A DNA stretch of 64,000 nt. Origin: Enterobacter sp. 638 (GTDB lineage Bacteria; Pseudomonadota; Gammaproteobacteria; Enterobacterales; Enterobacteriaceae). Below are positions 6,452-59,671 of the stretch, in pieces. Positions within the stretch are counted from its first letter, which is position 1. Each line of letters begins with the position of its first letter. The position numbers and the translations under genes are program-made. The notes under the pieces were generated by a model. The model worked only from the letters and a program-made list of their open reading frames with translations, did not search any database and had not been told where the DNA came from. The stretch is taken from contig NC_009425.1 of the NCBI RefSeq assembly GCF_000016325.1, positions 1 through 64,000 on the forward strand, in the 5' to 3' direction.

Positions 6452-6456
6452 GTATT

Positions 6457-8462: not shown

Positions 8463-8518
8463 CAGTGAGGATGGAGTTTACGGTGATTCCCGAGCGGGAG
8501 CCGATCTATCAGGTCAAT

Positions 8519-15256: not shown

Positions 15257-15272
15257 TTGCATTAAATAATCC

Positions 15273-15319
15273 AACTGCATCTTAAATGCTGAATAAAGCG
15301 AAGTAAGATGCAGTTTTTT
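15273..15319 (+). terminator. Rho-independent terminator of the second autotransporter gene
   Basis: A perfect 12-bp stem (AACTGCATCTTA and its complement) with a 19-nt loop runs into TTTTTT, 17 bases after the stop codon. Confidence 0.88.
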
Positions 15320-16290: not shown

Positions 16291-16320
16291 TTAAATGTTT
16301 TCTGAATTAGGGTATAAATC

Positions 16321-16578
16321 ATGAAGAAAAATGATGTTGCATATTCAAGAGTGGTATTCCGACGCCGTGACATGATGTACATTTATAAACTTTCATTCTG
16401 GTATCTAATTTCAATTATTATAATTCTATCCGGTTCAATGCTGGTTGGTATGGCGTACAATGCTAAATCAATACTTTTGCTATTAGATTTTTATATTTTA
16501 ATTATGATTTTCACATTATTATCGGCAGTAGTTAAAAACAGAAAAACGGTGAAGACCAAACGTGTAAGACCATATTAA
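16321..16578 (+). CDS. Small inner-membrane protein with two predicted segments
   Basis: The protein has 85 residues. A basic, Arg-rich N-terminus is followed by two hydrophobic stretches (WYLISIIIILSG and LLLLDFYILIMIFTLL) and a basic tail, the pattern of a two-pass membrane protein with both ends in the cytoplasm. The stop codon directly abuts the ATG of the flippase gene, so translation is probably coupled. I recognise no family. It may be an accessory subunit of the flippase. Confidence 0.65.
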   Translation: MKKNDVAYSRVVFRRRDMMYIYKLSFWYLISIIIILSGSMLVGMAYNAKSILLLLDFYILIMIFTLLSAVVKNRKTVKTKRVRPY

Positions 16579-17844: not shown

Positions 17845-17847
17845 CTC

Positions 17848-42630: not shown

Positions 42631-43065
42631 TTAGCCGCCCGGTCTGTATAGTTGGTTTGAACCTTCAACCTTCGCCTGATGGTCCTTCGCAGCGAAATCA
42701 TATTCCGGGAACAGGATGAGTGGCTGCGGGTGTAGGCCAACGACCTTACCCTGGCAGAATCCATCGCGTTTCAGCTTCCGGATGAGATTATTCGCATAGA
42801 CGTCCAAGGGAGTATCGAGGAGGGCCAAAGGGTGTTGCACTGGCTTGTTAGGATGACGAAGGTATAATTCCGGGATCAACGCAGCACGGACTGCGACCGT
42901 GATAAATGATACGTCGCTTACAGGACATTCCATTGCAGTCAGTGCTGTCACGATTTACCGGCTTACGTTTTCGGAGCGATAGACCCATCCAATAACTGAA
43001 AGAACAGAGGGGATAGCCAGCATCGTACCTACTACGAGCTGTCGCTTTAGTACATCACCTGTCAT
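42631..43065 (-). pseudogene. Last gene of the srf operon, interrupted by TAA at codon 37
   Basis: The ATG at 43065 overlaps the previous stop (TAATG). The frame begins MTGDVLKRQLVVGTMLAIPS and continues as a membrane segment (VLSVIGWVYRSENVS), meets TAA at 42957-42955, and then stays open to 42631 (FITVAVRAALIPELYLRHPN, NNLIRKLKRDGFCQGKVVGL, ILFPEYDF). The open distal part and the coupling show that this was one 144-residue membrane-anchored protein. No family recognised. The break is either recent decay or a recoded stop. Confidence 0.6.
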
Positions 43066-43541
43066 TAATCGGAGTATCCATAGGTGCCATCGTCACCAGT
43101 ATCCGATTCCTGCACCAGGTTTTCTCCGCGATAAGTCTGGCTCAGGAATCCGCCGTTGGTGCACTCTTTTTTCATCAGCAATTTGGCGTTTTTATAGACC
43201 TTCAGGCCGGTAAACTCCCAGCCTTTACCTATGCCGCTGTACACCACATAGCTGTATACGCCATTAATAAAGCGGTAATAAGAGGCACCGCCACCGGAGA
43301 AGGGCACCTGGCCGGCGCGAACCTGGGTTTTATCCCCTTCGGATTTAGGCAGGGTCATTTCGACTTTATCGATCGTGCCGTAGTAGTAGGTTGGTACGTC
43401 GTTATTGAGACGCACAACCACCCCTTTACCATTGGATAAATCACAGTTGAAAAGCAGTTCAGGGTCAGGCGGTGCTGCAATTGCGTGGTTCAGGAGCGTT
43501 GCCGATACAAGGAGGCTTAGGGCAATCAGTCTTATTTTCAT
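43065..43541 (-). CDS. Small exported protein of the srf operon
   Basis: The 158-residue protein has a signal peptide (residues 1-22, IALSLLVSATLLNHAIA, cut before APP). The mature part is beta-rich with two Cys that could form a disulfide (LLFNCDLSNGKG and LMKKECTNGG), a Tyr-rich segment (YYRFINGVYSYVVYSGIGKGWEF) and an acidic tail. Unrecognised family; predicted periplasmic. 56 bases downstream of the lipoprotein gene in the same leftward unit. Confidence 0.8.
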   Translation of the reverse strand: MKIRLIALSLLVSATLLNHAIAAPPDPELLFNCDLSNGKGVVVRLNNDVPTYYYGTIDKVEMTLPKSEGDKTQVRAGQVPFSGGGASYYRFINGVYSYVVYSGIGKGWEFTGLKVYKNAKLLMKKECTNGGFLSQTYRGENLVQESDTGDDGTYGYSD

Positions 43542-43597
43542 GGTGTTGTCCTGAGAAGAAGAATCCTGCCGGGTCGGTGCCCGGCAGGTCGTGCACG

Positions 43598-44080
43598 TTA
43601 CTGGCTCGCCAGGGTGGTTTGCAGCTCGGCTAACTGGCCCTGCAGTTTTTGCAGCTCCATCTGTTTTTGCATGACAGAGTCGCTCGGTCGGTTTTGCGCC
43701 TCTTTAATGCTTTTTTCAAGGTCGGTAACCTGTTTTTGCGCATCTGCGCGTCCGGCGGTTTTCGTTTTAAGCTGTGCCACCAGCTTATTCAGCGAGCTTT
43801 GCAGCGCCTGTTGAGATTGACGTTTGCTGGCAACGCTGGCGTGGCTCTGCGCTTTCTCTTTCTCAATGGCTTCGTTAACCGCTTTAAACTCCGCATTCAG
43901 AATCTGCTCGTGCGCGAGCGTGTTCTGTTTATCATCCACGCGCTTATCCCAGGTACCGGAATAGTTGCAGTTAAATTTGTTGACGATACTGACATCGCCC
44001 GTGGTCGGGTCGCAGTCTCGTGCATCCGTCGCACAGCCGCTCAACAGTAGGGCACCAACGGCCAGCAGTAAATAACGCAT
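43598..44080 (-). CDS. Coiled-coil lipoprotein of the srf operon (160 aa)
   Basis: A lipobox (LLLSGC, Cys16) ends the signal peptide. Cys23 and Cys38 frame a short N-terminal region (CDPTTGDVSIVNKFNC), which resembles the start of other small outer-membrane lipoproteins. From about residue 60 the chain is a long coiled coil (EAIEKEKAQSHASVASKRQ, QKQMELQKLQGQLAELQTTL). The residue after Cys is Ala, so outer-membrane sorting is expected. It probably spans periplasmic distance or oligomerises with the 234-residue lipoprotein next to it. Confidence 0.85.
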   Translation of the reverse strand: MRYLLLAVGALLLSGCATDARDCDPTTGDVSIVNKFNCNYSGTWDKRVDDKQNTLAHEQILNAEFKAVNEAIEKEKAQSHASVASKRQSQQALQSSLNKLVAQLKTKTAGRADAQKQVTDLEKSIKEAQNRPSDSVMQKQMELQKLQGQLAELQTTLASQ

Positions 44081-44090
44081 TCAGCTCTCC

Positions 44091-44795
44091 TTAACCCACT
44101 TTCAGCGCGGTACGCTGGGTGTACAGGCTATCCAGCTCGCCCTGCAGAGAGCCGATCTTGTCGTGCATCAGCGCAATTTTGCTGTCAAGGTTCTTGGTGT
44201 CGCTGCCGGTTTTATCCATACTCGCAGAGACGTCCTGCCACTGTTTTTCATGCTTTTTCATATCCGTGATGGTGTTACGCAGATAGGCGATATTGGCATC
44301 CACCCCTTTGATCTGCTTCTGAACCACCTCTTTTTTCGCCGTCTTTGCAGCCATCTCTTTTTCAATGCTGGCCAGCGTCTGTTTGTCGGACGCGATAACC
44401 GATTTGGCAACGTTAGTGGCGTTCTGAATGCGGGCATTTTCGTTTTCCACATCTTTGATTGCCGCGTCTAACTGCAGCTCTTTCGAGGCATATTTCTTAC
44501 GCTGATTATCCAGATAGGCGTTGGCGCCTATGCCGACGCCGCAACCGGCAACCGCTGCCGCCGCCATACACACGGCTTTGTTGCTGGAGTTACTGACGGC
44601 GCACGCCAGCGCACCCAGCGCCGCGCCACCGGCGCAAGCCTGCCAGCCAGATTTGTTAAAAAACTCCACGTCCTGATTATTGGCCAGACGAGGGTCTACG
44701 CCGCCGCTGCTGCTGCTCCCCGAGCTCTGACAACCTGCAAGAACGACCATCAGACCTGCAACTGCTGCTGTGCGTAATGCTTTAAAAGTAACCAT
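44091..44795 (-). CDS. Lipoprotein with glycine-zipper and coiled coil (234 aa)
   Basis: A lipobox (VVLAGC, Cys22) is followed by a Ser/Gly linker, a small-residue hydrophobic hairpin with Gly-zipper character (CAGGAALGALACAVSNS, AAAAVAGCGVGIGANAYL), and a ~130-residue coiled coil (KKYASKELQLDAAIKDVENE onward). Gly-zipper hairpins insert in or lie against membranes. It lies 10 bases before the next lipoprotein gene. It is likely to be anchored in the outer membrane and to reach through the periplasm. Confidence 0.85.
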   Translation of the reverse strand: MVTFKALRTAAVAGLMVVLAGCQSSGSSSSGGVDPRLANNQDVEFFNKSGWQACAGGAALGALACAVSNSSNKAVCMAAAAVAGCGVGIGANAYLDNQRKKYASKELQLDAAIKDVENENARIQNATNVAKSVIASDKQTLASIEKEMAAKTAKKEVVQKQIKGVDANIAYLRNTITDMKKHEKQWQDVSASMDKTGSDTKNLDSKIALMHDKIGSLQGELDSLYTQRTALKVG

Positions 44796-44818
44796 TAACT
44801 GCTATCTCCTTGTCAACA

Positions 44819-46354
44819 TTAATTATTTTTTTTGCATGCCATCAGCCACGCATCGCGCGCGACTTTGCCATCTTTCCAGTAGCCCTGAAGGTTGTTCCAG
44901 TAGGTGTCCAGGTAGCCGTTCAGGTTCGTTTTTCCGCGTGCAGCCATCTGCTGCTGGACCACGGCAATCTGCGGGTCGATCAGCGGTTTGTTGTAGGTGG
45001 AGCCCATATCAACCAGCGTGTCAGCGTAGTAGCTGGAGATAAAATCCAGCGCTTTCTGGTGCTGACCCAGCTGTTCCTGGCGGCGCGCGCAGTTGGCGTC
45101 CAGCTGGCTGTCGGCGGCGCAGGTCTTGCTGTAGAGCTGGTTCAGACGCTCGAGGAACTCCCCGTCATCTTTCATTTTGGTACATAGGAATGCGCCCAGT
45201 TGCAGCGAAGTCCGAATGGCCTGGTCACGCTGCTCATCGCGCAGTTGGCTGTTGGCACGCAGCTCGCCGCGCAGTTTTTCCAGCTCTTTTTTAAGCCCAT
45301 CATCCTGAACTTTGGCAGAGATGGCGTTCAGGTTTTGCAACGAATCCGGCGCCTTGCCTTTTGCGGCGGTTTTTTGCCCGCTGCCAAGGGCTTGCCACTC
45401 TTTCTCGATCTCTTTCACGCGATCGCGGGAGGTGAGGGTGGTGGAGACCATCACCAGGCGCACGCCGGTGGTTTTACTCACGTTCTCGCCGCTGTCGGTG
45501 TAGTAAGGTTCTTCGCCGCGCAGGGCGCTACGAATATCCCCCTGGGTAGTGACATAGCTGCCGCCGCGGACCACATAGCCGCCCGCTTTACCGTGCAGAC
45601 GATCCAGCTTGTTCAGGCGGAAAGGTTCAAACATCATCTCCGCGACGTTGCCCATAATGTCATGCAGGCCAAGCGGATTCGGTTTTAACATGCCAGTCAG
45701 CTGCAACTTGCCGTTGGCTGACTGTGCGCCGGCAAACCAGACGTAGCCGTTCAGCCCTTCCGGCATCGGGAAGGACTGATCACGAAACTCAGACGGGGAC
45801 ACCGCCAGCCCGCCACGGGCGGCAAACTCCCACTCTGTTTCCGTCGGCAAACGCAAGAAGCCTGGCTGCCCGTCGTCTTTGGGCAGTGAGGCGAGTTTTT
45901 CTTTGCGTAGCCACAGATTGTACTGGTTGGCGAACGCCATCGCATCCATCCAGCCGATGCTCACTTTCGGCAGGCGGCCTTTGATGTCGGGTTTCGGGCA
46001 CTCACCGGAGAGGGCGCGGAACTGCAAATCGCTCAGTTCGTACTTCGCGATCAGGTAATAACGGCCTTTGTTCTTCGGATCAGGGAAGCTGCCAGCAATA
46101 TGCTCCTGCCGGGATTGCTCCACGAACCCCCATGCATCGCCCTCCTGACCGAGGACGATGTTGTAATCTTCTAAGGGTTTGTTTTGCGGTATGGCGACCT
46201 TGCGAAACGCCATCGCGCCGTCGCACGGCATCGGCAGGATCACATCGTCTGCCAGCGGTTTGGGGTTCCAGAACTTCTCATCCCAGGTGGCCTGCACGGC
46301 GCAGGAGTAGCCCAGCCCCATCAACGACAGGCCCAGTGCCAGTTTAAATTTCAC
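44819..46354 (-). CDS. Exported FGE-sulfatase (SUMF1)-like domain protein
   Basis: The 511-residue protein has a signal peptide (1-22, ending VQA). Residues ~110-310 form the formylglycine-generating-enzyme-like fold: YYLIAKYELSDLQFRAL, the VSIGWMDAMAFANQYN helix, LRLPTETEWEFAARGG, GLHDIMGNVAEMM, and the VRGGSY...RSALRGEEP end. I do not see the copper-binding Cys pair of true sulfatase-activating enzymes, so it is more likely a binding or scaffold domain than an enzyme. The C-terminal 170 residues are helical. It overlaps the ABC permease gene by 11 bases. Confidence 0.87.
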   Translation of the reverse strand: MKFKLALGLSLMGLGYSCAVQATWDEKFWNPKPLADDVILPMPCDGAMAFRKVAIPQNKPLEDYNIVLGQEGDAWGFVEQSRQEHIAGSFPDPKNKGRYYLIAKYELSDLQFRALSGECPKPDIKGRLPKVSIGWMDAMAFANQYNLWLRKEKLASLPKDDGQPGFLRLPTETEWEFAARGGLAVSPSEFRDQSFPMPEGLNGYVWFAGAQSANGKLQLTGMLKPNPLGLHDIMGNVAEMMFEPFRLNKLDRLHGKAGGYVVRGGSYVTTQGDIRSALRGEEPYYTDSGENVSKTTGVRLVMVSTTLTSRDRVKEIEKEWQALGSGQKTAAKGKAPDSLQNLNAISAKVQDDGLKKELEKLRGELRANSQLRDEQRDQAIRTSLQLGAFLCTKMKDDGEFLERLNQLYSKTCAADSQLDANCARRQEQLGQHQKALDFISSYYADTLVDMGSTYNKPLIDPQIAVVQQQMAARGKTNLNGYLDTYWNNLQGYWKDGKVARDAWLMACKKNN

Positions 46355-47576
46355 GTAAACTCTCCGCAGGTTCGATTTTCAGGGCGCGTAAGGCCCCGAT
46401 CGCGGCAACGCTGAGTGCAACCACCAGCACGCACAGCAGCGCCGCAAAATAATGAAGGGGTTCGAGGTGGCAGACAAACGCCTGATCGGGCAGCGAGGTG
46501 CCCAGCACCCGGTTAAACAACGTGCTGCCCAGCAGATAGAGCACCAGCCCGGCAGCGAATGCCACACTGGTCAGAAACAGCGCCTGAATCACAATAAACA
46601 GGGTGACGGCGCGACGGCGAAAACCGAGCAGCCGCAGTATCGCCATGTCCTTTCTCTTGCGATCGATATTGGCGATAAAGGCGCCGATCAACGAGGCGAT
46701 ACAACCCGTCGCTGAGATCCAGGCAATCACGCCGAAGATGACGCCCAGCACGCGATCGATTGCCTGCACGGCCTCAATTTGTGCCGCCTGGGTGACCGCT
46801 TCGATGTGCTGCTCTTCCAGCCAGCGTGCCAGCACCGGGACATCATCTAGCGAACTGGCATACACCCGGGCCCGGGAGAAGCGTGTGCGCTCCCGGGGCG
46901 GTTTGCCCTCGCTAACCTGAAGCAGCGGCACCTGATAGCCGTCGCGATAGTCCTCCAGCGCCACCAGCAGCGGCAGAGTGACAAAAGCGCCAGGCCGGGC
47001 AAACCGGGCGTCGTCCAGCACGCCGCTCACCGTCAGGGCGAAGGCCGCGCGTTGGTTTTGTCCCTCCACTTTGCGGTTAACCATCAGGCGGAATGAGTCG
47101 CTGGGCTTGAGATCGAGCCGACGGGCCGCGCTGGCGCTCAACACCACCTGATTATCCTGGCGAGGCACGACGACGTCCGACAACAGCGGATCGCCGCTGC
47201 CGGTGGGGATCACTTCAGCACCCGCAACAAAGTGCTGACCATCGCGCACCAGATCTGCCTGGGTGTTCAGCGAGCGGGTCAGGGGAATCGAAAAGCCCAC
47301 TTCCGGGCGTTCGGCCAGCTGTTCCAGCCAGCTGAAATCGTAATTTCCGTTGCCTGTGATCCGCACTTCTCGGGTGCGGGGATCGTCCAGCAGCTGGTGG
47401 CGAAGTTGGCTGACGATGCCGTTTTTCAGCCCGAAGAGCAGGAGCAGCGGGGCAATCACGGCAATTAGCGAAAAGATAATGCACAGGGCGACTTTGCGAT
47501 CGTGGACCAGATCGCGCAGTGCCATGCGCCAGAGCAGGCCGCGTTCAGAGGGCCTGTCAACCGGGTAGGAAGACAC
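46344..47576 (-). CDS. FtsX/MacB-type ABC transporter permease
   Basis: The GTG at 47576 with GAGGGG just upstream is chosen; it overlaps the ATPase gene by 20 bases. The product has about 410 residues: one N-terminal membrane helix (VALCIIFSLIAVIAPLLLLFG), a ~230-residue extracytoplasmic domain, then three C-terminal helices (VIAWISATGCIASLIGAFIAN, ALFLTSVAFAAGLVLYLLG, YFAALLCVLVVALSVAAIGA). This is the MacB/FtsX topology of mechanotransmission ABC systems such as LolCDE, which do not necessarily transport across the membrane. Partner of the ATPase encoded upstream. Confidence 0.88.
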   Translation of the reverse strand: MSSYPVDRPSERGLLWRMALRDLVHDRKVALCIIFSLIAVIAPLLLLFGLKNGIVSQLRHQLLDDPRTREVRITGNGNYDFSWLEQLAERPEVGFSIPLTRSLNTQADLVRDGQHFVAGAEVIPTGSGDPLLSDVVVPRQDNQVVLSASAARRLDLKPSDSFRLMVNRKVEGQNQRAAFALTVSGVLDDARFARPGAFVTLPLLVALEDYRDGYQVPLLQVSEGKPPRERTRFSRARVYASSLDDVPVLARWLEEQHIEAVTQAAQIEAVQAIDRVLGVIFGVIAWISATGCIASLIGAFIANIDRKRKDMAILRLLGFRRRAVTLFIVIQALFLTSVAFAAGLVLYLLGSTLFNRVLGTSLPDQAFVCHLEPLHYFAALLCVLVVALSVAAIGALRALKIEPAESLREI

Positions 47577-48243
47577 TTTTCCCCTCCTCAATGCTTGCGG
47601 TGTAACGTTGAAGGCCGAATTGTTCAACACGCTGCCAGTCATGGCTGACGACGATCGCGGTCATCTCCAGAGTCCGCACCATGTCAACGATCAGTGCAAA
47701 CAGGCGGCTGGCGTTGTCTGGATCCAGCGCGGCGGTGGGTTCATCCGCCAGCAGCAGGCGCGGTTGATGGGCGATGGCGCGAATAAACGCCACGCGCTGT
47801 CGTTCACCAATGGAGAGCCGGGAAGGCAGGCTTTTCAGCAGGTGGCGCACGCCAAGGGTGTCGATGGCCGTCTCCAGCCAAGAGGATTGGGTGGTGAGGC
47901 CTGCCAGCCGTCGCGCCAGGGTGATATTTTCCATCACCGACAGCCACGGCAGCAGCCCACCATGTTGCAGCATAAAACCCAAATCGCGGGCGCGAATAGC
48001 GGCCAGCGCAGGTTCGTCTTCGGCCAGCAGCGGGGCGGCAATGTCACGCTCGCCCAGTTGATAGGCACCGAGGGTGCCGGGGCGCAGAATCGCCCCGGTC
48101 ATTTCCAGCAGCGTGCTTTTGCCGCAGCCGCTGGGGCCGGTCAGCGCCGCCACTTCACCGGGGCGGAGCGTTAACGCCGGCAGCGAGACGTAGAAGCCCT
48201 GCGCTCCCCCACGGCGGATGTCCATATCGCGAATGTGGAGCAT
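47557..48243 (-). CDS. ABC transporter ATP-binding protein
   Basis: The 228-residue ATPase has Walker A (GPSGCGKSTLLE), a Q-loop (GFMLQHGGLLPW), signature LSIGERQRVAFIRA, Walker B (RLLLADEPTAALD) and the H-loop His (IVVSHDW). Family: MacB/LolD type. It is coupled to the permease by overlap and to the VWA gene by TGATG. Confidence 0.93.
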   Translation of the reverse strand: MLHIRDMDIRRGGAQGFYVSLPALTLRPGEVAALTGPSGCGKSTLLEMTGAILRPGTLGAYQLGERDIAAPLLAEDEPALAAIRARDLGFMLQHGGLLPWLSVMENITLARRLAGLTTQSSWLETAIDTLGVRHLLKSLPSRLSIGERQRVAFIRAIAHQPRLLLADEPTAALDPDNASRLFALIVDMVRTLEMTAIVVSHDWQRVEQFGLQRYTASIEEGKSVFLPG

Positions 48244-50198
48244 CAGGGCAGGTTCTCCAGCGGAACCGGGTAGACGTTATCCCGCGGGTCACTGTCAGGC
48301 GCCAGCGCGATCCAGCGATCAGCATCTTCGTTGTAGCGCTGGTAATAGTTGAGTTTGGTGTTCAGGCGGCGAATGAAACGCTCCTGCTCCAGCCCATCCC
48401 AGCTCTTCCAGGTCTCTTCATCGAGGCTCAGCACTTCGCTCAGATAAGGCAGGCTTTCGATGTACTCGCCCAGAAGGCCCATTTCACCGAGGCGGGTCGC
48501 ATTTTTACCTTTTGCCTGGTTCGGATCGTTGCCCATGGTCGCGGCCAGAGATCGCAGGCTGGCGAACATGTCATCCGGCGAGATCATCCCTTCGTTGGCG
48601 GCATTGACGATCTTCTTCATCACGTCGTTCAGATCGCTCAGCTCGCTTTTGGTCAGCAGGACGCGGACTTCGGTGGCCGGGAGGTTCTGATTCACCAGAT
48701 CGCGATCGCTAATCCACGATTTAAACACCGGCGGCACCTGCGTACCCTGCTTTTCACCCAAGTACGCCAGACGCATGGCTTTGCTCAGTTTCTCGGCATC
48801 GCTCAGCAGCGGATCGGCTTTCTTACCGGCGTATTCCGGGCTGGCGCCCAGGGCGCTGCCTGCGGTCTCTTCCCCGCTCCAGGCGGTTTTGATCTGGGCG
48901 GTAATGGCATTTGACAGGCTGTCGACGATGGTGCCGAAGCTGTTCACATCGCCGGAATCGATCGGGTAGTACAGCGGCTTATGCAGGAACGGATTAAGCG
49001 TCAGCTCCTGATATTGCGCAGCGGCGGAGGCGTGATTTTTCTTCCCGTCCGGTGTTTTCAGGTGCAGGGTGTACAGCGCGACGCCACGGTACGCCGCTTC
49101 CTGCCGCACCTGCTCCGCGCCCAGATGGGTGGAAGATAGGCTGTCGGTGCCGTCCAGTGCGCCCGCATCGGTGATCAACACCACATAGCGCGCACCAAAC
49201 TGCGTCCAGTCGACTTTATCCAGCGCGGTCATCACCCCGGCGTAGGCGTCTTCATCCACTTTGCTACTGGAGACGGTCGCCTGCTTCAGGTCATGCACTT
49301 TGGCGAGGAAATCTTTGCCGTCTTTCACCGTGTTCGGATCGACATACATTTTGGCATCGTATTCCAGCCCAGGCACCGCCTTCACGCTGGAACGGTAGGC
49401 CACCAGGCCAAATTTCACTTTGTCCTGTAACTGCTCTTTTTCGATCTGTTTGTAGATCTTGTCGATCGCCTCTTTAGTGCGATCAATGTACGGCCCCATC
49501 GAGATAGTCGAGTCGATCACGAACACCACCGACGCCGAGAAGCCCTTCATCATGTTCTTCTCGTCGGTCGCTTTAGCCGAGGTAGTGGCGCTGCCATTCT
49601 CACTGACCGAAGCCACGTTCAGCACCCGTACCTGGAAACCGGTATCGGTAAAGATATCGTCAGAACCCAGTACGGGCAGCAGGTAGAAGTTTTTCAGCTG
49701 ATCGACCATGTAGTCTGGTTCACGAGCCAGTACCTGTGGCACCGGCTTTTTCTGATTCAGACTGGCGATCATCGGCTCCAGCGCGGCAGCAGGTTTGGCG
49801 TTGTTCAGCAGCGACTCCACATCGCCCTTCTCTTTGAAGAACAGCATCGGGTGGCGTCCGGCGGGGTTGGTAAAGGCCAGCGTGAGCTGCACTTTCCAGT
49901 CCACGGTGCAGGAGGACTTCATCCAGCCAGAGACGTGGCCGAAACTGTCCGGCCCGACCTGCAACCACTCGTCCTGGCCCTGTTTTTCACGCTGATAAAC
50001 GTAAAAGCGGCTGAACGCAGGCTGTTCTTTACCCGCTTCGCCCGCTTTGGCGGCCAGCATGCAACCGGGATAGGTGAGCACGCGCTGGAACAGCGTGTGT
50101 TTCCCTTCCTGCAGCAGCGGCTTTGTGTCAGCGGCGTGAGCAGGCAAACTTAATGCCGCCGCGCACAACAGGCCGCTGAATCCATAACTCTTTTTCAT
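48243..50198 (-). CDS. Exported von Willebrand A domain protein (VWA2)
   Basis: The 651-residue protein has a signal peptide (1-22, ending AHA). The VWA domain starts near residue 224 (FSASVVFVIDSTISMGPYID), with MIDAS Asp-x-Thr-x-Ser instead of the usual Asp-x-Ser-x-Ser, a conserved Thr region and the strand ARYVVLITDAGALDG. The N-terminal 200 residues and the C-terminal 240 are helical, unrecognised. Predicted periplasmic; the MIDAS would bind a metal and a partner acidic residue. It precedes the ABC ATPase with a TGATG overlap. Confidence 0.87.
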   Translation of the reverse strand: MKKSYGFSGLLCAAALSLPAHAADTKPLLQEGKHTLFQRVLTYPGCMLAAKAGEAGKEQPAFSRFYVYQREKQGQDEWLQVGPDSFGHVSGWMKSSCTVDWKVQLTLAFTNPAGRHPMLFFKEKGDVESLLNNAKPAAALEPMIASLNQKKPVPQVLAREPDYMVDQLKNFYLLPVLGSDDIFTDTGFQVRVLNVASVSENGSATTSAKATDEKNMMKGFSASVVFVIDSTISMGPYIDRTKEAIDKIYKQIEKEQLQDKVKFGLVAYRSSVKAVPGLEYDAKMYVDPNTVKDGKDFLAKVHDLKQATVSSSKVDEDAYAGVMTALDKVDWTQFGARYVVLITDAGALDGTDSLSSTHLGAEQVRQEAAYRGVALYTLHLKTPDGKKNHASAAAQYQELTLNPFLHKPLYYPIDSGDVNSFGTIVDSLSNAITAQIKTAWSGEETAGSALGASPEYAGKKADPLLSDAEKLSKAMRLAYLGEKQGTQVPPVFKSWISDRDLVNQNLPATEVRVLLTKSELSDLNDVMKKIVNAANEGMISPDDMFASLRSLAATMGNDPNQAKGKNATRLGEMGLLGEYIESLPYLSEVLSLDEETWKSWDGLEQERFIRRLNTKLNYYQRYNEDADRWIALAPDSDPRDNVYPVPLENLP

Positions 50199-50207
50199 TC
50201 CTTAATC

Positions 50208-51143
50208 CTATTTTTTCAGCTCAGCTAAACGGGCTTTCGCTTCGGCGTTTTGCGGATCCTGATTCACCACCGCTTCGTACCAGTAGCTGGCCGTTTGCGG
50301 GTCAGGGCTGAAACATCCCTCCGCCTGGGCGGATTTCGGGTCATATTCCTGCGCGTAGCGCATCGCCATCTGGCTATCGCCGGACTGCGCCTTGTAGGCA
50401 TACAGGCGTTGGGCGACGTCACATTTTTTGTCGGCTTTCGCTTTGGTAATCACATCCAGCAGCTGGGCGCTGCTTGGCTGGCTGCGCAGACAGCCTTTGA
50501 CGAAGTCCATGGCGTTGCCGCTGTTCATCAGATCATCACCGCAAGGGCCGCTGATTTTGGCTACCGGGGCCGCAGGGGCCGGTGCGGGTTGACGCATAAA
50601 CCACCATCCGGCAGCGGCAGCAGCCAGCAGCAGGGCGATCACGGCGAGAATAATCGCCATCGGCGCTTTGCTTTTTGCGGGGGCCGCAGGCACGTCAACG
50701 ACCGGATCTGGCGCCGGGGCTTCCACCACCGGCGCAGGCTGCGCGGGCGTGGTGACGTCCAGCGTTTGGCTGTTCGCGGCCAGTGGGTTTTCCCCGCCGG
50801 CCTGAGAGCTGAGCAGGCCGTCAGTAATCGCCAGAATGCCCATATCACGGGCACCGCTGTCTTTAATGGCGATGCGATACGCTGCCTGACGGTTGGCCAG
50901 CAGTGGGTCGATAAACGACGGGCCAACCTGCACGGCAGGCACGTCGTCAACGAGGCCGAGGGCTGGCAGGCCAAGGAACATTTCCCCGCTCACCCAACCG
51001 CCGCGGCTGTCGAGGTACAGGTTGTCCTGGTTGCGCAGGATGGAGATCTCAACGCCCACGATGCCGCCTTTCCAGCCCTTAAGCAGCAGGGTGGCATAGC
51101 CAGGATTGACGGGGTTTAAGGGTTTTAATTCGGGTTTGATCAC
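50208..51143 (-). CDS. Bitopic membrane protein with TPR/Sel1-like periplasmic part
   Basis: The 311-residue protein starts without a signal peptide. Residues 1-120 form a cytoplasmic beta-rich domain (YATLLLKGWKGGIVGVEISIL, NLYLDSRGGWVSGEMFLG). A Pro/Ala linker leads to one membrane helix near 163-183 (AIILAVIALLLAAAAAGWWF). The periplasmic part has cysteines (GPCGDDLMNSG, VKGCLRSQP, KKCDVAQR, EGCFSPDP) and short helical repeats ending NQDPQNAEAKARLAEL. It lies 6 bases downstream of srfC, so it may connect SrfC in the cytoplasm with the exported parts. Confidence 0.82.
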   Translation of the reverse strand: MIKPELKPLNPVNPGYATLLLKGWKGGIVGVEISILRNQDNLYLDSRGGWVSGEMFLGLPALGLVDDVPAVQVGPSFIDPLLANRQAAYRIAIKDSGARDMGILAITDGLLSSQAGGENPLAANSQTLDVTTPAQPAPVVEAPAPDPVVDVPAAPAKSKAPMAIILAVIALLLAAAAAGWWFMRQPAPAPAAPVAKISGPCGDDLMNSGNAMDFVKGCLRSQPSSAQLLDVITKAKADKKCDVAQRLYAYKAQSGDSQMAMRYAQEYDPKSAQAEGCFSPDPQTASYWYEAVVNQDPQNAEAKARLAELKK

Positions 51144-51149
51144 GTCCGG

Positions 51150-53795: not shown

Positions 53796-56700
53796 TAGCT
53801 TTTGATACTCCCGCTATCCAGCCAGTAGTGCGTCTCGCTGAGACCGTTACCGACCATAGTGTTCAACTGGAAGGCCACGTCTTTGCGGTTGTAGTTGCGA
53901 CGGGCATGATCCGTCTCGAGGGATTCAATGCGGAACTTCTCGGGACTGACCGCCTCGATGCCGTTGCGTGGGCGTCCCTGCTCGGCGGTGAGTTCGATGC
54001 GCATCATGGCATCCCCGGCCAGCTCGCTCGCGAGGTTAGGGTTGGCGATTTTCAGCGTGTAAAGTGCAGAGGCAGGCCAGCGCTCGTTATCAAGCTGGCG
54101 GAAACCAATGCGCACTTCGCCACGCGCGTCAAAGCTTTGCCCCTGCGGAAGCTGGAACGCCGGCGCGTCGAGATCGATATCGCGATAAAAGACGTTGCTG
54201 TCTTTGATCAGGTTGTTGCCGTCCAGCATGCCGAGATAGCGGATGGTGGAATAAGGCACAAAGTTCTGGGTGCGGAAGAAGAAGCTGCTCAACCGCGAGT
54301 TCTCTGCCAACAGGTACAGCATCGCCCCAACCGAAGCGGTAGATTTCGGGTCGTCGATACAGCCTTTCTTGTTGAACGGATACCAGCCACCGGTCTCATA
54401 GCCATGCAGAGGCAGCACGCGCGATGGCGGCACCGGCTGAAGCTGGCGGATCAGCGCCTGAATCCCCGGGAGACGCGACGGACGACCCGTCAGCAGCAGC
54501 ACGTCGCAGTTATAGTGCCAGAGCACTTCGCACAGGGCGCGCAGGCTGTGGCAGATGTTCATGCGGCCACTGCGTGGGTTAATGAATTCGTTGTGCAGGT
54601 TGGCCAGATCGATCTCCAGCGGCACATCGAGAATAGAGAAGAGCGCTTCGCTGGACAGTTGACCCATGCGCACCACGTCATTCACGTAGTCCTGCACTTT
54701 TTGCGTCGGCATGTTTTCGGTCAGCAGATCGCGGAACGTGAAGCTGAGCTGCTCGCGGCCGCTCTCCGGCGAATACTCTTCATAGCGATGCAGGATCGCC
54801 AGCGCCAGTGGGGCGAAGATCTGCAGGGTCAGCTGCTGACGCAGAACCTGCTTGCCCGCCTCGATGGATTCGCTGCCAAACAGCTGCGACATCATCGATT
54901 CTGCGGTCATATCGCTATGGCCAACCTTCACGATCGCGGCTTTCACAGCCGGTTGCAGGTACAGGCGGATCACATCCAGCAGGATGTCGTCTCCCGCCAC
55001 TTTGAAGCCTTCGCGGAACAGCTGTTTTGGCGTGATACGGACGTTGATGCCTTCGCCGTCATCCAGCGTATAGCGCGAGATCACCAGGTCAGTGGTGCCG
55101 CCGCCAATATCAATGGAGGCCACCTTCAGGCTGCGCGGCGCGTTTGCGGCAGGGGCGTTGTCCGGGCGACGGGTCGCCGCAAAGAACTCATCGGTACGCC
55201 CACCAAAGTAGGTCTGGGTTTCGTTGTACAGATAGACCAGCTGTCCGCAGGTGGCTTCGTCCCACTTCACGTGAACGCCAGGTCGCGGATGTTTCAGCTG
55301 TTCGTTGTCTTCACTTTCGTCGTCCATCTCCTCCCAGCCCAGCGCTTTCCACACCAGACGGATGGCATCCAGCATGCATTGCTCAAAGATGGCGCGTTCA
55401 GGTTTTGGCATCGCGGGCGGGACGGTCATGATCACATTGCGCAAGCGGCGCGGCGTGCTGGCGTGGTTCATCTTCAGACGCTGCGCCGGGCTGTTGATCT
55501 GCATCAGCGCCTGGCTCAGGACTTCAGAGAGCATCATGGTCATTAACGAGCTGCGGCTGTAAACCGGGGAGAAGACCGGCATCCTCTCATCTTCAGGCAG
55601 ACGAATCAGCAGCTTGCCCTGGTCGTTAAGCATGTACAGCAGCGGGGCGGCGGTGGCGAGCGGCTCGCGATCGGATTTGACGAACGCCTGGCTGAAACGC
55701 CAGCCGGGGGAGTAAGGCTGGTCGTCCCACAGATAGCGTTTCGGGCTGGAGATCCCGGTTGAGCCTTCTGTTCCCAGGCGCTGTGCTGCCATGCGGAAGG
55801 CCTCATCGCCCACGCGGCCAATGGTCGGCCAGGTGAAGGCGTCGCTGCGTCCGCTTTTCAGCGAAAAGTCCTGCTTGCCAAACTCGGCCTGCGCAAACTC
55901 CAGGCGGCTGTCGAAGGGTTCGTTGTAGACGTTTTGCGGCTGGCTTAAGTCGCGAAGTTGCAGCTGGTAAAGCTGGGACAGACCTTTGTTGTCGTCGCGG
56001 TGCTCTTCAATCAGGATTCCGCAACTGCGGGAGTTGCCGATATCCAGCACCAAATCAACCGGAATGGCCGAGTCGCGGATCTTCACGTCATTGACCTGCA
56101 CTTCCGGGATGGCCACGGTGGCATCAAGGATATTCAGCAGGTTGAGGTAGTGCGCCTGGTGCTCTTTTTGCCCCAGTTTTTCATCAATATCTTCCGCATG
56201 CTGGCGCAGCACGTCGCGCGCCTGGGTGCTGAACACTTCACGCAACCACTCGTCTACCCACGGGAGGGTCAGGAAATCGCCCATCTCGTGCGGGTGCAGG
56301 GCCAGCGCAAAACCGGCGCCAGAGCGCACGTCATCTTCGCTGGGAGCCAGATATTGCGTGTTATCGCGATCCGGGAAAATTTTGGTATCGAAGATCAGGA
56401 TCGCGCGCCAGGTGTTGCCCTTCTCGTCGGGTTCTGCCAGCTCGTGGAACTGCACGCGCGCCCAGTTGGTTGGCCCGTGTGCAAACGCACGCGGCGGGTT
56501 AAAGCGGAAGAAGGGCAGCGGGAGCCACAGCCCCTGATAGAGGTGCAGTGACTCTTCCGTGGTCAGAGAGTAATCCGACTCAGCAAATTGTGGCGCGGCA
56601 TTATCTGCCGCCGGGATTTGCAGTTTATCTTCGCGTTCGTTATAGACCAGGCGCAGGATGGCGCCATCGCCGTTCTGGCGCAAAAAATCACCGTACTCTT

Positions 56701-56797
56701 TACGGGCAGGCAGCGTAAACGCGAAATCCAGGAACTGGATGCCACTGTCACGAATAATTTTGACCTGCTTTTTAAAATCAGTAAGTTCAGCGAGCAT
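53795..56797 (-). CDS. srfB: SrfB-family protein with Hsp70/actin-like ATPase core
   Basis: The 1000-residue protein carries the superfamily motifs in order: phosphate-1 (VDLVLDIGNSRSCGILIEEH, ~250), phosphate-2 (VASIDIGGGTTDLVIS, ~565) and the adenosine motif (CDVLLLTGRPSRLPGIQALI, ~770). The spacing is wider than in DnaK because of insertions. SrfB is widely annotated as a virulence factor, with no proven function. It begins directly after the srfA stop (TAAATG). An ATP-dependent switch or filament-forming protein in the cytoplasm is the simplest reading. Confidence 0.92.
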   Translation of the reverse strand: MLAELTDFKKQVKIIRDSGIQFLDFAFTLPARKEYGDFLRQNGDGAILRLVYNEREDKLQIPAADNAAPQFAESDYSLTTEESLHLYQGLWLPLPFFRFNPPRAFAHGPTNWARVQFHELAEPDEKGNTWRAILIFDTKIFPDRDNTQYLAPSEDDVRSGAGFALALHPHEMGDFLTLPWVDEWLREVFSTQARDVLRQHAEDIDEKLGQKEHQAHYLNLLNILDATVAIPEVQVNDVKIRDSAIPVDLVLDIGNSRSCGILIEEHRDDNKGLSQLYQLQLRDLSQPQNVYNEPFDSRLEFAQAEFGKQDFSLKSGRSDAFTWPTIGRVGDEAFRMAAQRLGTEGSTGISSPKRYLWDDQPYSPGWRFSQAFVKSDREPLATAAPLLYMLNDQGKLLIRLPEDERMPVFSPVYSRSSLMTMMLSEVLSQALMQINSPAQRLKMNHASTPRRLRNVIMTVPPAMPKPERAIFEQCMLDAIRLVWKALGWEEMDDESEDNEQLKHPRPGVHVKWDEATCGQLVYLYNETQTYFGGRTDEFFAATRRPDNAPAANAPRSLKVASIDIGGGTTDLVISRYTLDDGEGINVRITPKQLFREGFKVAGDDILLDVIRLYLQPAVKAAIVKVGHSDMTAESMMSQLFGSESIEAGKQVLRQQLTLQIFAPLALAILHRYEEYSPESGREQLSFTFRDLLTENMPTQKVQDYVNDVVRMGQLSSEALFSILDVPLEIDLANLHNEFINPRSGRMNICHSLRALCEVLWHYNCDVLLLTGRPSRLPGIQALIRQLQPVPPSRVLPLHGYETGGWYPFNKKGCIDDPKSTASVGAMLYLLAENSRLSSFFFRTQNFVPYSTIRYLGMLDGNNLIKDSNVFYRDIDLDAPAFQLPQGQSFDARGEVRIGFRQLDNERWPASALYTLKIANPNLASELAGDAMMRIELTAEQGRPRNGIEAVSPEKFRIESLETDHARRNYNRKDVAFQLNTMVGNGLSETHYWLDSGSIKS

Positions 56798-58204
56798 TTA
56801 CTTACTTGCCTCCTGCTTCATCGAAATAGGGAAAAGGGTGTTGGCGTCGTAGCGGCCCTTACAATCCGCAATGTTCTGCGCGCCTGGCGCACACTGAACT
56901 TCAGGCATTTGATAGACCGAGCCATCGGAACATTGGGCTTCACCCTGGTTATTGATCGCCAGATTGCCGGACTGGATGGCCGCATTGACCGCGCCGCGAC
57001 AGGTCACCCCATCGCCCCGCACCATCTGTACTTCGCCTTTGCCGTCGTTGATCTGGTAATTCAGACTGAGCGGCTTACCGGTGCGCTGATCCTGAATGCC
57101 CGCACCGGCGTGCCAGCGTCCGTTTAAGAAGTCGGTATTTCCCTGCGCCAGCGCATCGGTTGGAATCGTCAGCGGTGCTTTCACGCCCGGCAGGCTGTTG
57201 CCGGGAGTGACATCCGGCTGCGTCAGGCCCGGTGTGGCGTCCGGGATGGGCGTTTGTGCTGCGCTTTCTGGCGCCACAGGGTCAACCGGCGACGGATTTT
57301 CTGCGGGCGCTTCATCAGGCAGTGCGGGCGCAGCCGGCGGTTCACCGTTGGCGGGTATCTTGCCATTGGCAGACAGATTCGCTGACGGGAGCGACGAGTC
57401 CGGCAGGCTTGCGCCACTGCCGTTCAGCGACAGACCGTTGCCACCCGTACCGGTTGTTCCAGGGAGGTCGGTGTTGACCGAAGGCATCTTCAGATGCGCA
57501 TCCGGCAAGCCCGGCAGCGTGGCCGAAAAACCTGGGATAGAGAAACCGGGAACACAGCTGCGCAGCAGCAGCATGATCAGCAGGGCCAGCAGCAGCAAGG
57601 GGAGTAACCAGCGCAGCCAGGCGGGCAGCGTCCACCACCATCCCCGCCGTGTGACCGGGCGTTCAGTGAGGGGTTCCGCAACCACCGGGGCGGCCGGTGT
57701 AGCAACCGCAGGGGCGAGCGGGACGGGCGGGCGCAGGCAATCGAGCGGGTCGACACGGGACGGATGGCGGGCATTAACGAACCCCCAGAAGCTCATGACC
57801 GGTTTACCGCCTACCAGCCAGACATGGTTCTGGTCGGGGAACTGCATTGCCTTCTCCAGCAACTGGCCAAACAGGCGTTGTTCCGGGTTGGAATGCTGGC
57901 TGTATTCAGAACTGAACTGGCGTAAAACGGCGTGGCTGTTTTCCAGTTGACTCAGCGCGGCCTGGCGCTCGCTCTCGGTGGAGGCCGACCAGGGGATCAC
58001 ATCCCCGGTGGCGGGGGCATACCAGTCGATGCGATCGCCGTATTCATTGACCTGCGGAATTGCCAGCGTATCGGCAACCGCGCTCTGTTTTCTCAGACGC
58101 AGTGTTTCGCGAAGTTGCAGTGCGGAAATATGAACTGCCTGACCGTTCTCACCCATTGACTGGTATTTGTCGAGCTTGTCACTGCACAGGAACATCTCTT
58201 TCAC
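56798..58204 (-). CDS. srfA: SrfA-family bitopic membrane protein
   Basis: The GTG at 58204 overlaps the upstream small gene by four bases (GTGA); an ATG nine bases on is an alternative. The 468-residue protein has an N-terminal cytoplasmic domain (ALQLRETLRLRKQ, DRIDWYAPATGDVIPW, HVWLVGGKPVMSFWGFV), a membrane helix near 200-222 (WLLPLLLLALLIMLLLRSC), a long Pro/Ala/Gly linker and a C-terminal domain with paired Cys (GDGVTCRGAV, GEAQCSDGS, VQCAPGAQNIADCKGRYD). The N-terminal domain is related to that of the VWA protein at 58466. The C-terminal part should be periplasmic and disulfide-bonded. Confidence 0.9.
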   Translation of the reverse strand: MKEMFLCSDKLDKYQSMGENGQAVHISALQLRETLRLRKQSAVADTLAIPQVNEYGDRIDWYAPATGDVIPWSASTESERQAALSQLENSHAVLRQFSSEYSQHSNPEQRLFGQLLEKAMQFPDQNHVWLVGGKPVMSFWGFVNARHPSRVDPLDCLRPPVPLAPAVATPAAPVVAEPLTERPVTRRGWWWTLPAWLRWLLPLLLLALLIMLLLRSCVPGFSIPGFSATLPGLPDAHLKMPSVNTDLPGTTGTGGNGLSLNGSGASLPDSSLPSANLSANGKIPANGEPPAAPALPDEAPAENPSPVDPVAPESAAQTPIPDATPGLTQPDVTPGNSLPGVKAPLTIPTDALAQGNTDFLNGRWHAGAGIQDQRTGKPLSLNYQINDGKGEVQMVRGDGVTCRGAVNAAIQSGNLAINNQGEAQCSDGSVYQMPEVQCAPGAQNIADCKGRYDANTLFPISMKQEASK

Positions 58205-58365
58205 GTTGGCCTGCCCTTGCTGGTAATTATTTGGGTTAACTCTGCTTTATTGATATGTACAGCATCCTCGAGGGTGACAAATCGCAAGCGACGTGAATCA
58301 CCTTCCGGGCGGATAAAAAAATGAGCAGAAACATTATCGGCAGGTGACAGTAAACGTTTAGCCAT
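58201..58365 (-). CDS. 54-residue protein overlapping the start of srfA
   Basis: On the minus strand an ATG at 58365 opens 54 codons ending TGA at 58203-58201, which overlaps the srfA GTG by four bases. The product has a credible soluble composition (HFFIRPEGDSRRLRFVTLED, then HINKAELTQIITSKG). The coupling by GTGA matches the tight spacing of the rest of the operon. The ribosome site is weak. I recognise no family. Confidence 0.6.
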   Translation of the reverse strand: MAKRLLSPADNVSAHFFIRPEGDSRRLRFVTLEDAVHINKAELTQIITSKGRPT

Positions 58366-58465
58366 AAATTAAATTTTGCTGGCGGTGGCTGTTACCTGCA
58401 GGTAAAAAAGCGTTAGTTTCTCGCTGAAACGCTGTCGATATTAATCTGTCAAGGCTTTTGATGTA
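58366..58465. other. Gap inside the srf operon with a palindrome
   Basis: One hundred bases between the VWA1 stop and the small gene. It holds a perfect 14-bp palindrome TTACCTGCAGGTAA near 58391-58404, adjacent to a run of A on the plus strand (T on the minus strand is upstream of it, so it is not a standard leftward terminator). It may be an internal regulatory element. Confidence 0.4.
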
Positions 58466-59671
58466 TTAGTCGCAGGCCTCGGGGATATATTCCTTAATTG
58501 CCTGGTTCATCATTTCATTAAATTCATGGGTATTGTTTACGGCATAAACCGACCCCCCGGTCTGGCTGGCAATACAGTTTCCGGCACCGGTATTCATAAT
58601 ATCGACCACGTTGACCTGCAGGCGCGGTTTCTGCTGCTTGAGCTGCTGCGCGACCACGCACGGATCGCCGCCGCAGGTCTCTTCGCCGTCGGTGATGAGC
58701 ACGATGATAGCATCACGATCCACGCCATCGACCAGCTTGCCCGCCTTCTCCAGCGCTTCTGCCAGCGCGGTTTTCCCCACCGGTTGAATGTTATCGATGG
58801 CGTATTTCAGTTCATCGCGCTGGGCAAAAGAAAGGGCTGGCGTCACAGAGACTTGCTGGCAGGTTGCCGCCGATACCAGGCTGATATCCATGTCTTTTGG
58901 CACTTCGTCGATCAGCTGTTTTGCCGAGCGGTGCGCAAGGCTAATACGGCGAGGTTCGCGATCAAAATTCTTTACTGGCCTATCCTGCATCAGACGGCGC
59001 AGCTCATCCGGCGTAATGTCCATACTGATGGACATAGAACCTGATGCATCGAAAATTAACACCATTTCAGGGGCTTGCTGTTTGGTCCGTTTTGCCGGAC
59101 AGATCTGTTTTATCGGCAGCGGTGCTGGCGCAGGCGCACCCTGGACCGGTAATTTTGCCGTCGGCATGCAACCGCGTAGCAAAAGAAACGCCAGCAGCAC
59201 GAGCAATGCCAGCAGTAACCACCACCAACGGCGGCCCTTACTGGCAACCGGCGACACTGGCACGGCGGGGCTTTCGCACCAGGCTGTAATGACTGGCTGA
59301 CCATCAACCACCCAGACGCCGCGCTCATCAGACTGACAACTGGCGAGCGACAACACCTGCATAACGTCGACAGGCGCGGAGTTATTCATCGAGAGCTTTT
59401 GATAAAGTTGGTCAATGACCACTAGCTTTTGCTGTAACAAGACCCGCGCATGCTCTTTTTCTGCAGGTGGAAGCGCGATGAGTGAAACAGGTTGTCCGTT
59501 AATATCGCTGTACCACTCAATCGCACCATCCGAGGCTTGGTGTGGTCTGGCAAATAAATTTTTATAACCAGCAGAGAGATGCTGCTCAACAAGAGAAATA
59601 AAGGAAGGGTAGAGGTTGATATAATTTTGCACAGATTCGCTGTGCTCAACAGTCCTTGTTATTCTAATCAT
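58466..59671 (-). CDS. Membrane-anchored von Willebrand A protein (VWA1)
   Basis: The ATG at 59671 is preferred: the longer frame to 59737 would begin inside a TATAAT box. The 401-residue protein has an N-terminal domain related to that of SrfA (DGAIEWYSDINGQPVSLI, RGVWVVDGQPVITAW), a membrane helix (RWWWLLLALLVLLAFLLLRGC) and a periplasmic VWA domain with a perfect MIDAS (MVLIFDASGSMSISMD) and VILITDGEETCGGDPCV. Two extra Cys pairs lie near the end. It is the first gene of the srf transcription unit. Confidence 0.88.
   Translation of the reverse strand: MIRITRTVEHSESVQNYINLYPSFISLVEQHLSAGYKNLFARPHQASDGAIEWYSDINGQPVSLIALPPAEKEHARVLLQQKLVVIDQLYQKLSMNNSAPVDVMQVLSLASCQSDERGVWVVDGQPVITAWCESPAVPVSPVASKGRRWWWLLLALLVLLAFLLLRGCMPTAKLPVQGAPAPAPLPIKQICPAKRTKQQAPEMVLIFDASGSMSISMDITPDELRRLMQDRPVKNFDREPRRISLAHRSAKQLIDEVPKDMDISLVSAATCQQVSVTPALSFAQRDELKYAIDNIQPVGKTALAEALEKAGKLVDGVDRDAIIVLITDGEETCGGDPCVVAQQLKQQKPRLQVNVVDIMNTGAGNCIASQTGGSVYAVNNTHEFNEMMNQAIKEYIPEACD

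What the first reader, a model, noticed from the sequence alone, without database searches (positions are those of the whole stretch)
42631..59671. A 17-kb srfABC-centred operon that looks like an envelope-spanning nucleotide-driven machine
Fourteen genes on one strand, joined by overlaps or gaps of at most about 100 bases, encode: a membrane VWA protein, a 54-residue protein, SrfA (bitopic), SrfB (actin/Hsp70-fold ATPase), SrfC (P-loop GTPase-like), another bitopic protein, an exported VWA protein, a MacB/LolCD-like ABC ATPase and permease, an FGE-like exported protein, two coiled-coil lipoproteins, a small exported protein and a membrane protein. Together they cover cytoplasm, inner membrane, periplasm and outer membrane. 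Known: srfABC are annotated as virulence factors. Inferred: all genes form one apparatus. I know of no published mechanism for the full set.
Basis: partly seen in the sequence, partly recalled or inferred. Interest (0 to 1): 0.88.

Follow-up and report, generated by a model that had tools for sequence, protein, structure and literature searches.

The report
Envelope damage sensor wired to dynamin
A plasmid of a plant-dwelling bacterium carries a conserved gene block that joins the outer-membrane damage sensor known from the type VI secretion system (without its kinase) to the little-understood SrfABC proteins, one of which is predicted to fold like membrane-shaping dynamin GTPases.

Summary
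The gene block is real. The window is plasmid pENT638-1 of Enterobacter sp. 638. Two of the fourteen genes (54 aa, 106 aa) are not supported. Ten genes (srfA, srfB, srfC, a bitopic protein, VWA2, ABC ATPase, permease, FGE-like, two lipoproteins) keep one order and strand in 78 of 80 fetched loci. The kinase is missing. SrfC keeps GTPase motifs here and its predicted model resembles dynamins (mitofusin, EHD, BDLP). srfABC also occur alone, but 15 of 16 such rows form one nested clade in which SrfC's GTPase site mostly decays. I read this as a two-module machine: a TagQRST-type sensor driving a dynamin plus actin/Hsp70-like ATPase output at the inner membrane, probably a damage response. The neighbourhood was noted in Deltaproteobacteria in 2013; kinase loss, dynamin fold and decay did not turn up in my paper searches. 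Function is untested.

The parts
58466..59671 (-). VWA1: SrfA-like cytoplasmic N-domain, one TM (about 146-174), periplasmic VWA with MIDAS; output side
   Evidence: SrfA_fam 45 bits, residues 41-131, under that model's cut-off of 150; hits in 76 of 80 loci; 5' of srfA in Enterobacterales, 3' of LP2 in nearly all Pseudomonas-group loci
58201..58365 (-). 54-aa ORF, probably not a gene (srfA leader)
56798..58204 (-). SrfA, bitopic (TM about 191-226), conserved periplasmic C-domain; output module
   Evidence: (475 bits)
53795..56797 (-). SrfB, actin/Hsp70-like ATPase by motifs; output module
   Evidence: (1327 bits)
51150..53795 (-). SrfC, GTPase with a predicted dynamin-superfamily fold (P-loop 72-79, DFPG 355-358); output module
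50208..51143 (-). g6: bitopic protein, TM about 155-184, possibly Sel1/TPR-like periplasmic end; sits on the output side
   Evidence: relative annotated sel1; homologue beside SrfABC in a genome without the sensor
48243..50198 (-). VWA2: kinase-less homologue of the periplasmic half of PpkA, probably exported; sensor module
   Evidence: (26-651 to PpkA 403-1023, 37.5%)
47557..48243 (-). TagT-like ABC ATPase; sensor module
   Evidence: 41.7%, E 1.6e-43
46344..47642 (-). TagS-like FtsX-type permease (start in public annotation about 47525); sensor module
   Evidence: 37.8%, E 7.7e-74
44819..46354 (-). TagR-like FGE-fold protein without the active-site cysteine pair; sensor module
   Evidence: (32.9%, E 1.3e-64)
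44091..44795 (-). LP1: TagQ-like lipoprotein with coiled coil; sensor module
   Evidence: family profile 42 bits on TagQ; best of 500 shuffles 4.9; single-sequence BLAST found no match
43598..44080 (-). LP2: second coiled-coil lipoprotein; goes with the sensor
43565..43588 (-). GC-rich hairpin between LP2 and the 158-aa gene, possible end of the core operon
43065..43541 (-). 158-aa exported accessory protein, peripheral
42631..42951 (-). 106-aa ORF, not supported as a gene
39764..40753 (-). tyrosine recombinase near the island edge
   Evidence: annotated at the matching place in a Lelliottia plasmid

Best explanation
The block encodes a two-module envelope machine. Sensor: an outer-membrane lipoprotein (LP1, TagQ-like) with LP2, a periplasmic FGE-fold protein (TagR-like), an inner-membrane ABC unit (TagS/TagT-like) and a free periplasmic VWA protein that equals the ectodomain of the T6SS kinase PpkA without kinase or membrane anchor. 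Output: bitopic proteins with cytoplasmic N-domains and periplasmic C-domains (SrfA, its VWA paralogue VWA1, and g6) that carry the signal inward to SrfB (actin/Hsp70-type ATPase) and SrfC (dynamin-like GTPase). Most likely it senses local outer-membrane damage or contact, as TagQRST does for H1-T6SS, and then recruits the ATPase/dynamin pair to the inner membrane at that spot to remodel or reseal it. Shown by computation: homologies, order, kinase loss, predicted fold, motif decay. Inferred: cellular locations, the signal, the coupling through the bitopic proteins, and repair as the purpose.
Against: No experiment on this block. Repair is inferred from the dynamin fold and the T6SS homology. 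Stand-alone SrfABC has lost the sensor, and mostly the GTPase site, yet is kept, so SrfABC has some use without either; and four stand-alone rows, plus Rahnella, keep both SrfC motifs without a sensor. SrfB motifs also shift in stand-alone rows (GNSR to GN[ST]H in 15 of 16, GRPS lost in 10 of 16). SrfB's fold could not be modelled. SrfC has no predicted TM, so membrane contact is unproven; its fold match is a second look at Foldseek candidates, and one unrelated receptor row scored 9.6. A T6SS sheath gene is present in 38 of 46 genomes, own genome included, so crosstalk with T6SS is not excluded. Cytotoxicity of SrfABC is reported (PMC6950479, part 1 of 4 read, which also cites an earlier study of that group).
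Confidence: 0.5

Rival explanations
1. The block is an accessory regulator of the cell's T6SS: the TagQRST-like sensor with VWA2 acts in trans on a T6SS encoded elsewhere, and SrfABC modulates it.
For: TssB found in 38 of 46 genomes (two handles, G011 and G447, are evidently one genome), own genome included; strong homology to the T6SS sensor.
Against: No kinase, phosphatase or FHA match in the block proteins; the only PpkA-like match in the own genome is kinase-less VWA2; TssB not found in 8 of 46 genomes: three MAGs and isolates of Silvania, Proteus, Azomonas, Ventosimonas and Stutzerimonas (drafts may miss genes, and Ventosimonas lacks most of the sensor); host-associated Deltaproteobacteria with the neighbourhood mostly lack T6SS genes (PMC3608642, passages).
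Confidence: 0.15
2. SrfABC is a tripartite toxin or set of exported effectors and the other genes are its export and trigger apparatus.
For: X. stockiae SrfABC lysates are cytotoxic and the proteins form a complex (PMC6950479, abstract); PMC3608642 suggests that PpkA could trigger SrfC export (passages).
Against: SrfB and SrfC have no predicted TM and carry conserved NTPase motifs; no secretion channel recognised in the block; TagS/TagT act in signalling in T6SS (PMC6657622, passages); the block occurs in plant and rhizosphere isolates.
Confidence: 0.1
3. It is an immune system against phage or plasmids: the sensor reports envelope breach and the dynamin/ATPase pair blocks or aborts the invader.
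For: Carried on plasmids and islands; a relative of the sensor stands beside a TIR gene (L191); weak match of SrfC to LeoBC in the defence library (14.5 bits, E 0.0035).
Against: No convincing match to known defence proteins; also present on Pseudomonas chromosomes; the TIR neighbour was seen in one genome only.
Confidence: 0.15
4. It is a LolCDE/MacB-type exporter that moves the two lipoproteins or a peptide, with the rest as assembly factors.
For: ATPase and permease are of the LolD/FtsX class.
Against: Scores far under family cut-offs (LolD 118.7 of 307.75; LolCE 26.2 of 362.45); match with conserved gene order to TagT/TagS.
Confidence: 0.05

Closest known systems
TagQRST-PpkA-PppA sensor of P. 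aeruginosa H1-T6SS (threonine phosphorylation pathway); compared here with the cluster of Pseudomonas sp. Fl4BN1
   Different: No kinase domain, PppA or Fha; joined to srfABC and g6 instead of T6SS genes; extra lipoprotein LP2
Stand-alone srfABC operon (Salmonella, Enterobacter chromosome)
   Same: SrfA, SrfB, SrfC homologous and collinear
   Different: No sensor, g6 or VWA1 beside it; SrfC GTPase site mostly decayed
srf/tag neighbourhood of host-associated Deltaproteobacteria (PMC3608642, 2013)
   Same: srfABC with tagQ, ppkA, tagR, tagS, tagT in one neighbourhood, named as such by its authors
   Different: The passages I read call the VWA gene ppkA and invoke the kinase; they do not mention kinase loss, dynamin fold or decay
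Dynamin-like proteins (mitofusin, EHD, BDLP, IniA, SynDLP, LeoA)
   Same: Predicted fold of SrfC, P-loop and DxPG
   Different: About 7-14% identity in the fold alignments; no significant sequence match to solved chains; coupled to an envelope sensor

Membership tests
T6SS TagQRST/PpkA pathway | TagT, TagS, TagR homologues in order | tested here: met
T6SS TagQRST/PpkA pathway | TagQ lipoprotein | tested here: met
   family profile 42 bits against at most 4.9 in 500 shuffles; but no single-sequence match and NCBIfam TagQ model only 14.3 of 300
T6SS TagQRST/PpkA pathway | PpkA with kinase domain | tested here: not met
   no kinase in any of the 14 proteins; VWA2 aligns only to PpkA 403-1023, the kinase is at 12-251
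T6SS TagQRST/PpkA pathway | PppA phosphatase and Fha in the cluster | tested here: not met
T6SS TagQRST/PpkA pathway | T6SS core genes in the same cluster | tested here: not met
   none among the block proteins; TssB is on the chromosome
T6SS TagQRST/PpkA pathway | response to outer-membrane damage | not testable with these tools
   experiment needed
SrfABC | SrfA, SrfB, SrfC families adjacent in order | tested here: met
Dynamin superfamily (SrfC) | GTPase P-loop and DxxG | tested here: met
   91 of 91 and 90 of 91 extended SrfC rows, near-copies included
Dynamin superfamily (SrfC) | G4 motif (N/T-K-x-D, recalled) | tested here: inconclusive
   window has TMFD at that place; T and D are invariant in 32 rows, the lysine is not
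Dynamin superfamily (SrfC) | dynamin fold | tested here: met
Dynamin superfamily (SrfC) | membrane binding, assembly-stimulated GTP hydrolysis | not testable with these tools
   experiment needed
Actin/Hsp70 ATPases (SrfB) | phosphate and adenosine motifs (recalled) | tested here: met
   extended rows: D.GNSR 91 of 91, DIGGGT[TS]D 91 of 91, GRPS 91 of 91; stand-alone: GNSR 1 of 16, D.GGGTTD 16 of 16, GRPS 6 of 16, GRP 16 of 16
Actin/Hsp70 ATPases (SrfB) | fold | not tested
   structure queue full; no sequence match in solved chains
Formylglycine-generating enzyme | FGE-type domain | tested here: met
   PF03781 103 bits
Formylglycine-generating enzyme | active-site cysteine pair after RGGS (recalled) | tested here: not met
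LolCDE exporter | curated LolD and LolCE cut-offs | tested here: not met
Known anti-phage systems (PADLOC) | clear match to a defence model | tested here: inconclusive
   only weak or coiled-coil matches in the 10 proteins scanned

The most novel reading that the evidence does not exclude
TagQRST with a VWA ectodomain is a general, portable receptor for envelope breach in Proteobacteria with exchangeable outputs: PpkA kinase and T6SS (retaliate), SrfABC-g6 with a dynamin and an actin/Hsp70 ATPase (reseal), and in other lineages TIR or peptidase genes. The textbook srfABC 'virulence' operon of Salmonella and relatives is a reduced descendant that lost the sensor and then SrfC's GTPase.
Probability: 0.35. 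Interest if true: 0.88.

Novelty: new variant of a known kind. Interest (0 to 1): 0.74.

Why it matters
SrfABC has been annotated as a virulence factor of unclear function since about 2000 (reference in PMC2869309). Tying it to a sensor of outer-membrane damage, and naming SrfC as a dynamin-like GTPase with natural decayed versions, gives direct tests: what triggers it, where it goes, and whether GTP hydrolysis matters only with the sensor. It also suggests that TagQRST is wider than T6SS control. Plasmids of many Klebsiella carry relatives of the block's genes.

Tried and rejected
Rejected: FGE-like protein as a sulfatase-activating enzyme (cysteine pair absent); LolCDE or MacB exporter; known defence system; T6SS control as the only function (no kinase; TssB not found in 8 of 46 genomes); the 54-aa and 106-aa ORFs as genes.

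Led nowhere: sequence search of solved structures with VWA2, SrfA, g6, SrfB and SrfC gave nothing significant. Paper searches for SrfB, SrfC with von Willebrand and SrfC with dynamin found nothing relevant; two searches were swamped by unrelated papers; two searches gave PMC3608642 as the paper linking SrfB and PpkA (one search's other hit, PMC7146990, was not opened). Azotobacter L088 has extra DNA between core genes that I did not resolve. My first P-loop pattern was wrong (0 everywhere); counts come from aligned columns. Strict SrfB patterns also undercounted variants; one search gives the columns. Rows dropped: the distance comparison used 72 of 81 loci, those whose ten proteins passed length limits; it lacks a species-tree control, so it shows co-inheritance, not interaction. 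The 107 SrfC rows hold near-copies and four pairs of identical rows (103 distinct); Fisher values ignore relatedness, and L036 (one of 9 extended sample loci) had no row in that table. Only 80 of 228 confirmed loci were kept; T6SS was tested in 46 handles (43 of those 80 loci plus 3). The tree root is a midpoint, some long branches meet, and the first fork inside the stand-alone clade is unresolved. The fold match comes from VIA-align on Foldseek's candidates; the plain Foldseek job never ran. Only one kinase-bearing PpkA was checked for its kinase; the six long frames were not.
Full report
Where it is. The genome has two contigs, 4,518,712 and 157,749 bp, and the window is the first 64,000 bases of the smaller. 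These sizes equal the chromosome and plasmid pENT638-1 of Enterobacter sp. 638 (PMC2869309, passages). That 2010 paper already describes a 23-kb, GC-rich island with an integrase, srfABC and ORFs like those of Azotobacter, plus a second srfABC on the chromosome. GC is 0.56-0.61 in the 2-kb steps from 44 to 58 kb and 0.45-0.50 in the steps next to them. A Lelliottia plasmid holds the stretch at 100% identity and a Leclercia plasmid at 92.4%.

What is really in the block. Twelve ORFs are supported and two are not (see the observation check). VWA1 looks like a paralogue of SrfA with a VWA domain: its N-terminal part matches the SrfA model (45 bits, below that model's cut-off).

Conservation as a unit. 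A VWA2 alignment found 228 confirmed loci among named genomes; the best 80 were kept. In 78 of 80 all ten core genes SrfA-SrfB-SrfC-g6-VWA2-ATPase-permease-FGE-LP1-LP2 lie in one order and strand. The two exceptions are a truncated contig (L086) and Ventosimonas (L093), which has SrfABC-g6-VWA2 only. Taxa include Silvania, Enterobacter, Xenorhabdus, Proteus, Pseudomonas, Azotobacter, Stutzerimonas and Halopseudomonas. Gluconobacter and Cereibacter plasmids (Alphaproteobacteria) show SrfB-SrfC-g6-VWA2-ATPase-permease-TagR-like in the same order, preceded by SrfA/VWA1-like genes, and Gluconobacter also has LP1- and LP2-like genes. VWA1 matches in 76 of 80 but moves: before srfA in Enterobacterales, after LP2 in nearly all of the Pseudomonas group. 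A Klebsiella plasmid has the whole set with LP1, LP2 and a VWA1-like gene moved in front of srfA. Kept content under changed order is good evidence of a functional unit. Pairwise distances correlate among components (Spearman 0.76-0.95, 72 loci); this alone shows co-inheritance.

What the downstream half is. In Pseudomonas sp. Fl4BN1 one cluster holds, in a row, TagQ-, TagR-, TagS-, TagT-, PpkA- and PppA-like genes (L163; kinase, PP2C, FGE and glycine-zipper domains confirmed), about 12 kb from a TssB gene. Against them, VWA2 aligns to PpkA residues 403-1023 at 37.5% (E 3e-135), the ATPase to TagT at 41.7% (E 2e-43), the permease to TagS at 37.8% (E 8e-74), the FGE-like protein to TagR at 32.9% (E 1e-64). 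LP1 alone finds no match there, but a profile of its family scores 42 bits on TagQ, the best of 500 shuffles 4.9. PpkA has its kinase at 12-251, a TM near 339-362, then the shared part. VWA2 is therefore the ectodomain of PpkA on its own. No kinase, phosphatase or FHA domain is in the block proteins. TagQRST-PpkA responds to mechanical and chemical outer-membrane damage in P. aeruginosa (PMC11881912 and PMC6657622, passages).

Even sample. In 397 genomes drawn evenly from the phylum, 22 have SrfB over the cut-off, with 24 loci: 9 extended, 15 without the sensor (one of the nine, G170, is split over two contigs). In the same sample VWA2 matches lie in 17 genomes: 9 in frames of 652-738 aa, exactly the genomes with extended loci; 6 in frames of 1017-1189 aa, in genomes without SrfB; and two others without SrfB (L191, L192). 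So the short form goes mostly with SrfB. Those six long frames have the length of PpkA; I checked the kinase itself only in L163.

Two modules. L192 has VWA2-like, TagT, TagS, TagR, a TagQ-like protein (53 bits) and an LP2-like protein (32 bits, coiled coil, bias 13.5) but no Srf gene in the stretch, nor SrfB over the cut-off in the genome. L154 (G195) has SrfA-like genes, SrfB, SrfC and a g6 homologue (77 bits) but no VWA2 match in the genome. Hence LP2 seems to go with the sensor and g6 with SrfABC.

Loss and decay. In the SrfB tree 15 of 16 stand-alone rows form one clade (100/100) nested within extended Enterobacterales rows (midpoint root). In the 16 stand-alone rows the P-loop is kept in 5 and DxxG in 4. 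Rows with both are G262, G360 and G399, which leave the clade at its first, unresolved fork, and the separate G195; Rahnella keeps both too. The own chromosomal copy reads GHSQAAKA, and one Salmonella record is altered at both motifs, though its srfC aligns in two pieces there. SrfB is less changed: D.GGGTTD and GRP stay in 16 of 16, but GNSR becomes GN[ST]H in 15 and GRPS is lost in 10. So the GTPase site seems to be held mostly where the sensor is present. Several of these rows are close relatives, so counts are not independent events.

How it may work. Damage or contact at the outer membrane changes LP1/LP2 and the TagR-like protein; the ABC unit and VWA2 pass this to bitopic SrfA, VWA1 and g6; their N-domains load or recruit SrfB and SrfC at the inner membrane, where a dynamin could reseal or constrict membrane. 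Only the parts list and its evolution are shown; the flow of signal and the purpose are inference. Poor swarming of a Salmonella srfC mutant (PMC4219756, passages) fits surface or envelope stress but concerns the reduced form.

Prior knowledge. PMC3608642 (passages) reported srfABC with tagQ, ppkA, tagR, tagS and tagT in host-associated Deltaproteobacteria and noted that only one of them has T6SS machinery genes; PMC6950479 (part 1 of 4: abstract, introduction, first results) mentions T6SS control genes near srfABC in Xenorhabdus. My searches (open-licence PMC only, listings capped) showed no paper on kinase loss, a dynamin fold of SrfC or its decay.

Verdict. A real, conserved, composite system; a new variant of a known sensor with an unexplored output.

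Noticed in passing
L191 (G427:C2:787000-806900), 3492-15546: A kinase-less VWA2-TagT-TagS-TagR-TagQ set without SrfABC stands beside a TIR-domain gene (TIR_2, 55.9 bits) and a trypsin-like peptidase gene.
   Followed up: partly
L192 (G071:C35:25000-44900), 9520-18684: Sensor genes with an LP2-like lipoprotein followed by an S41 peptidase gene, no SrfABC.
   Followed up: partly
plasmid collection; example L176 (pKPN-065): 114 Klebsiella plasmid records match VWA2 and 114 match SrfB; in the one examined the whole set is present, with IS elements on either side.
   Followed up: partly
G000:C2:3161742-3162194: The own chromosome encodes the T6SS sheath protein TssB, whereas the 2010 genome paper says that the Hcp export apparatus is absent (passage).
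   Followed up: no
L034 11606-12037 and L176 26907-27362: IrmA-family genes lie next to the block in the Leclercia and Klebsiella plasmids; no significant match in this window.
   Followed up: no
L195 1-824: A gene annotated as serine protease precedes the srf block in Cereibacter, recalling the trypsin-like gene beside the sensor in L191.
   Followed up: no
L193 8884-11660: A Thiodictyon plasmid has VWA2- and TagT-like genes with no other block gene detected in the stretch, perhaps a remnant.
   Followed up: no
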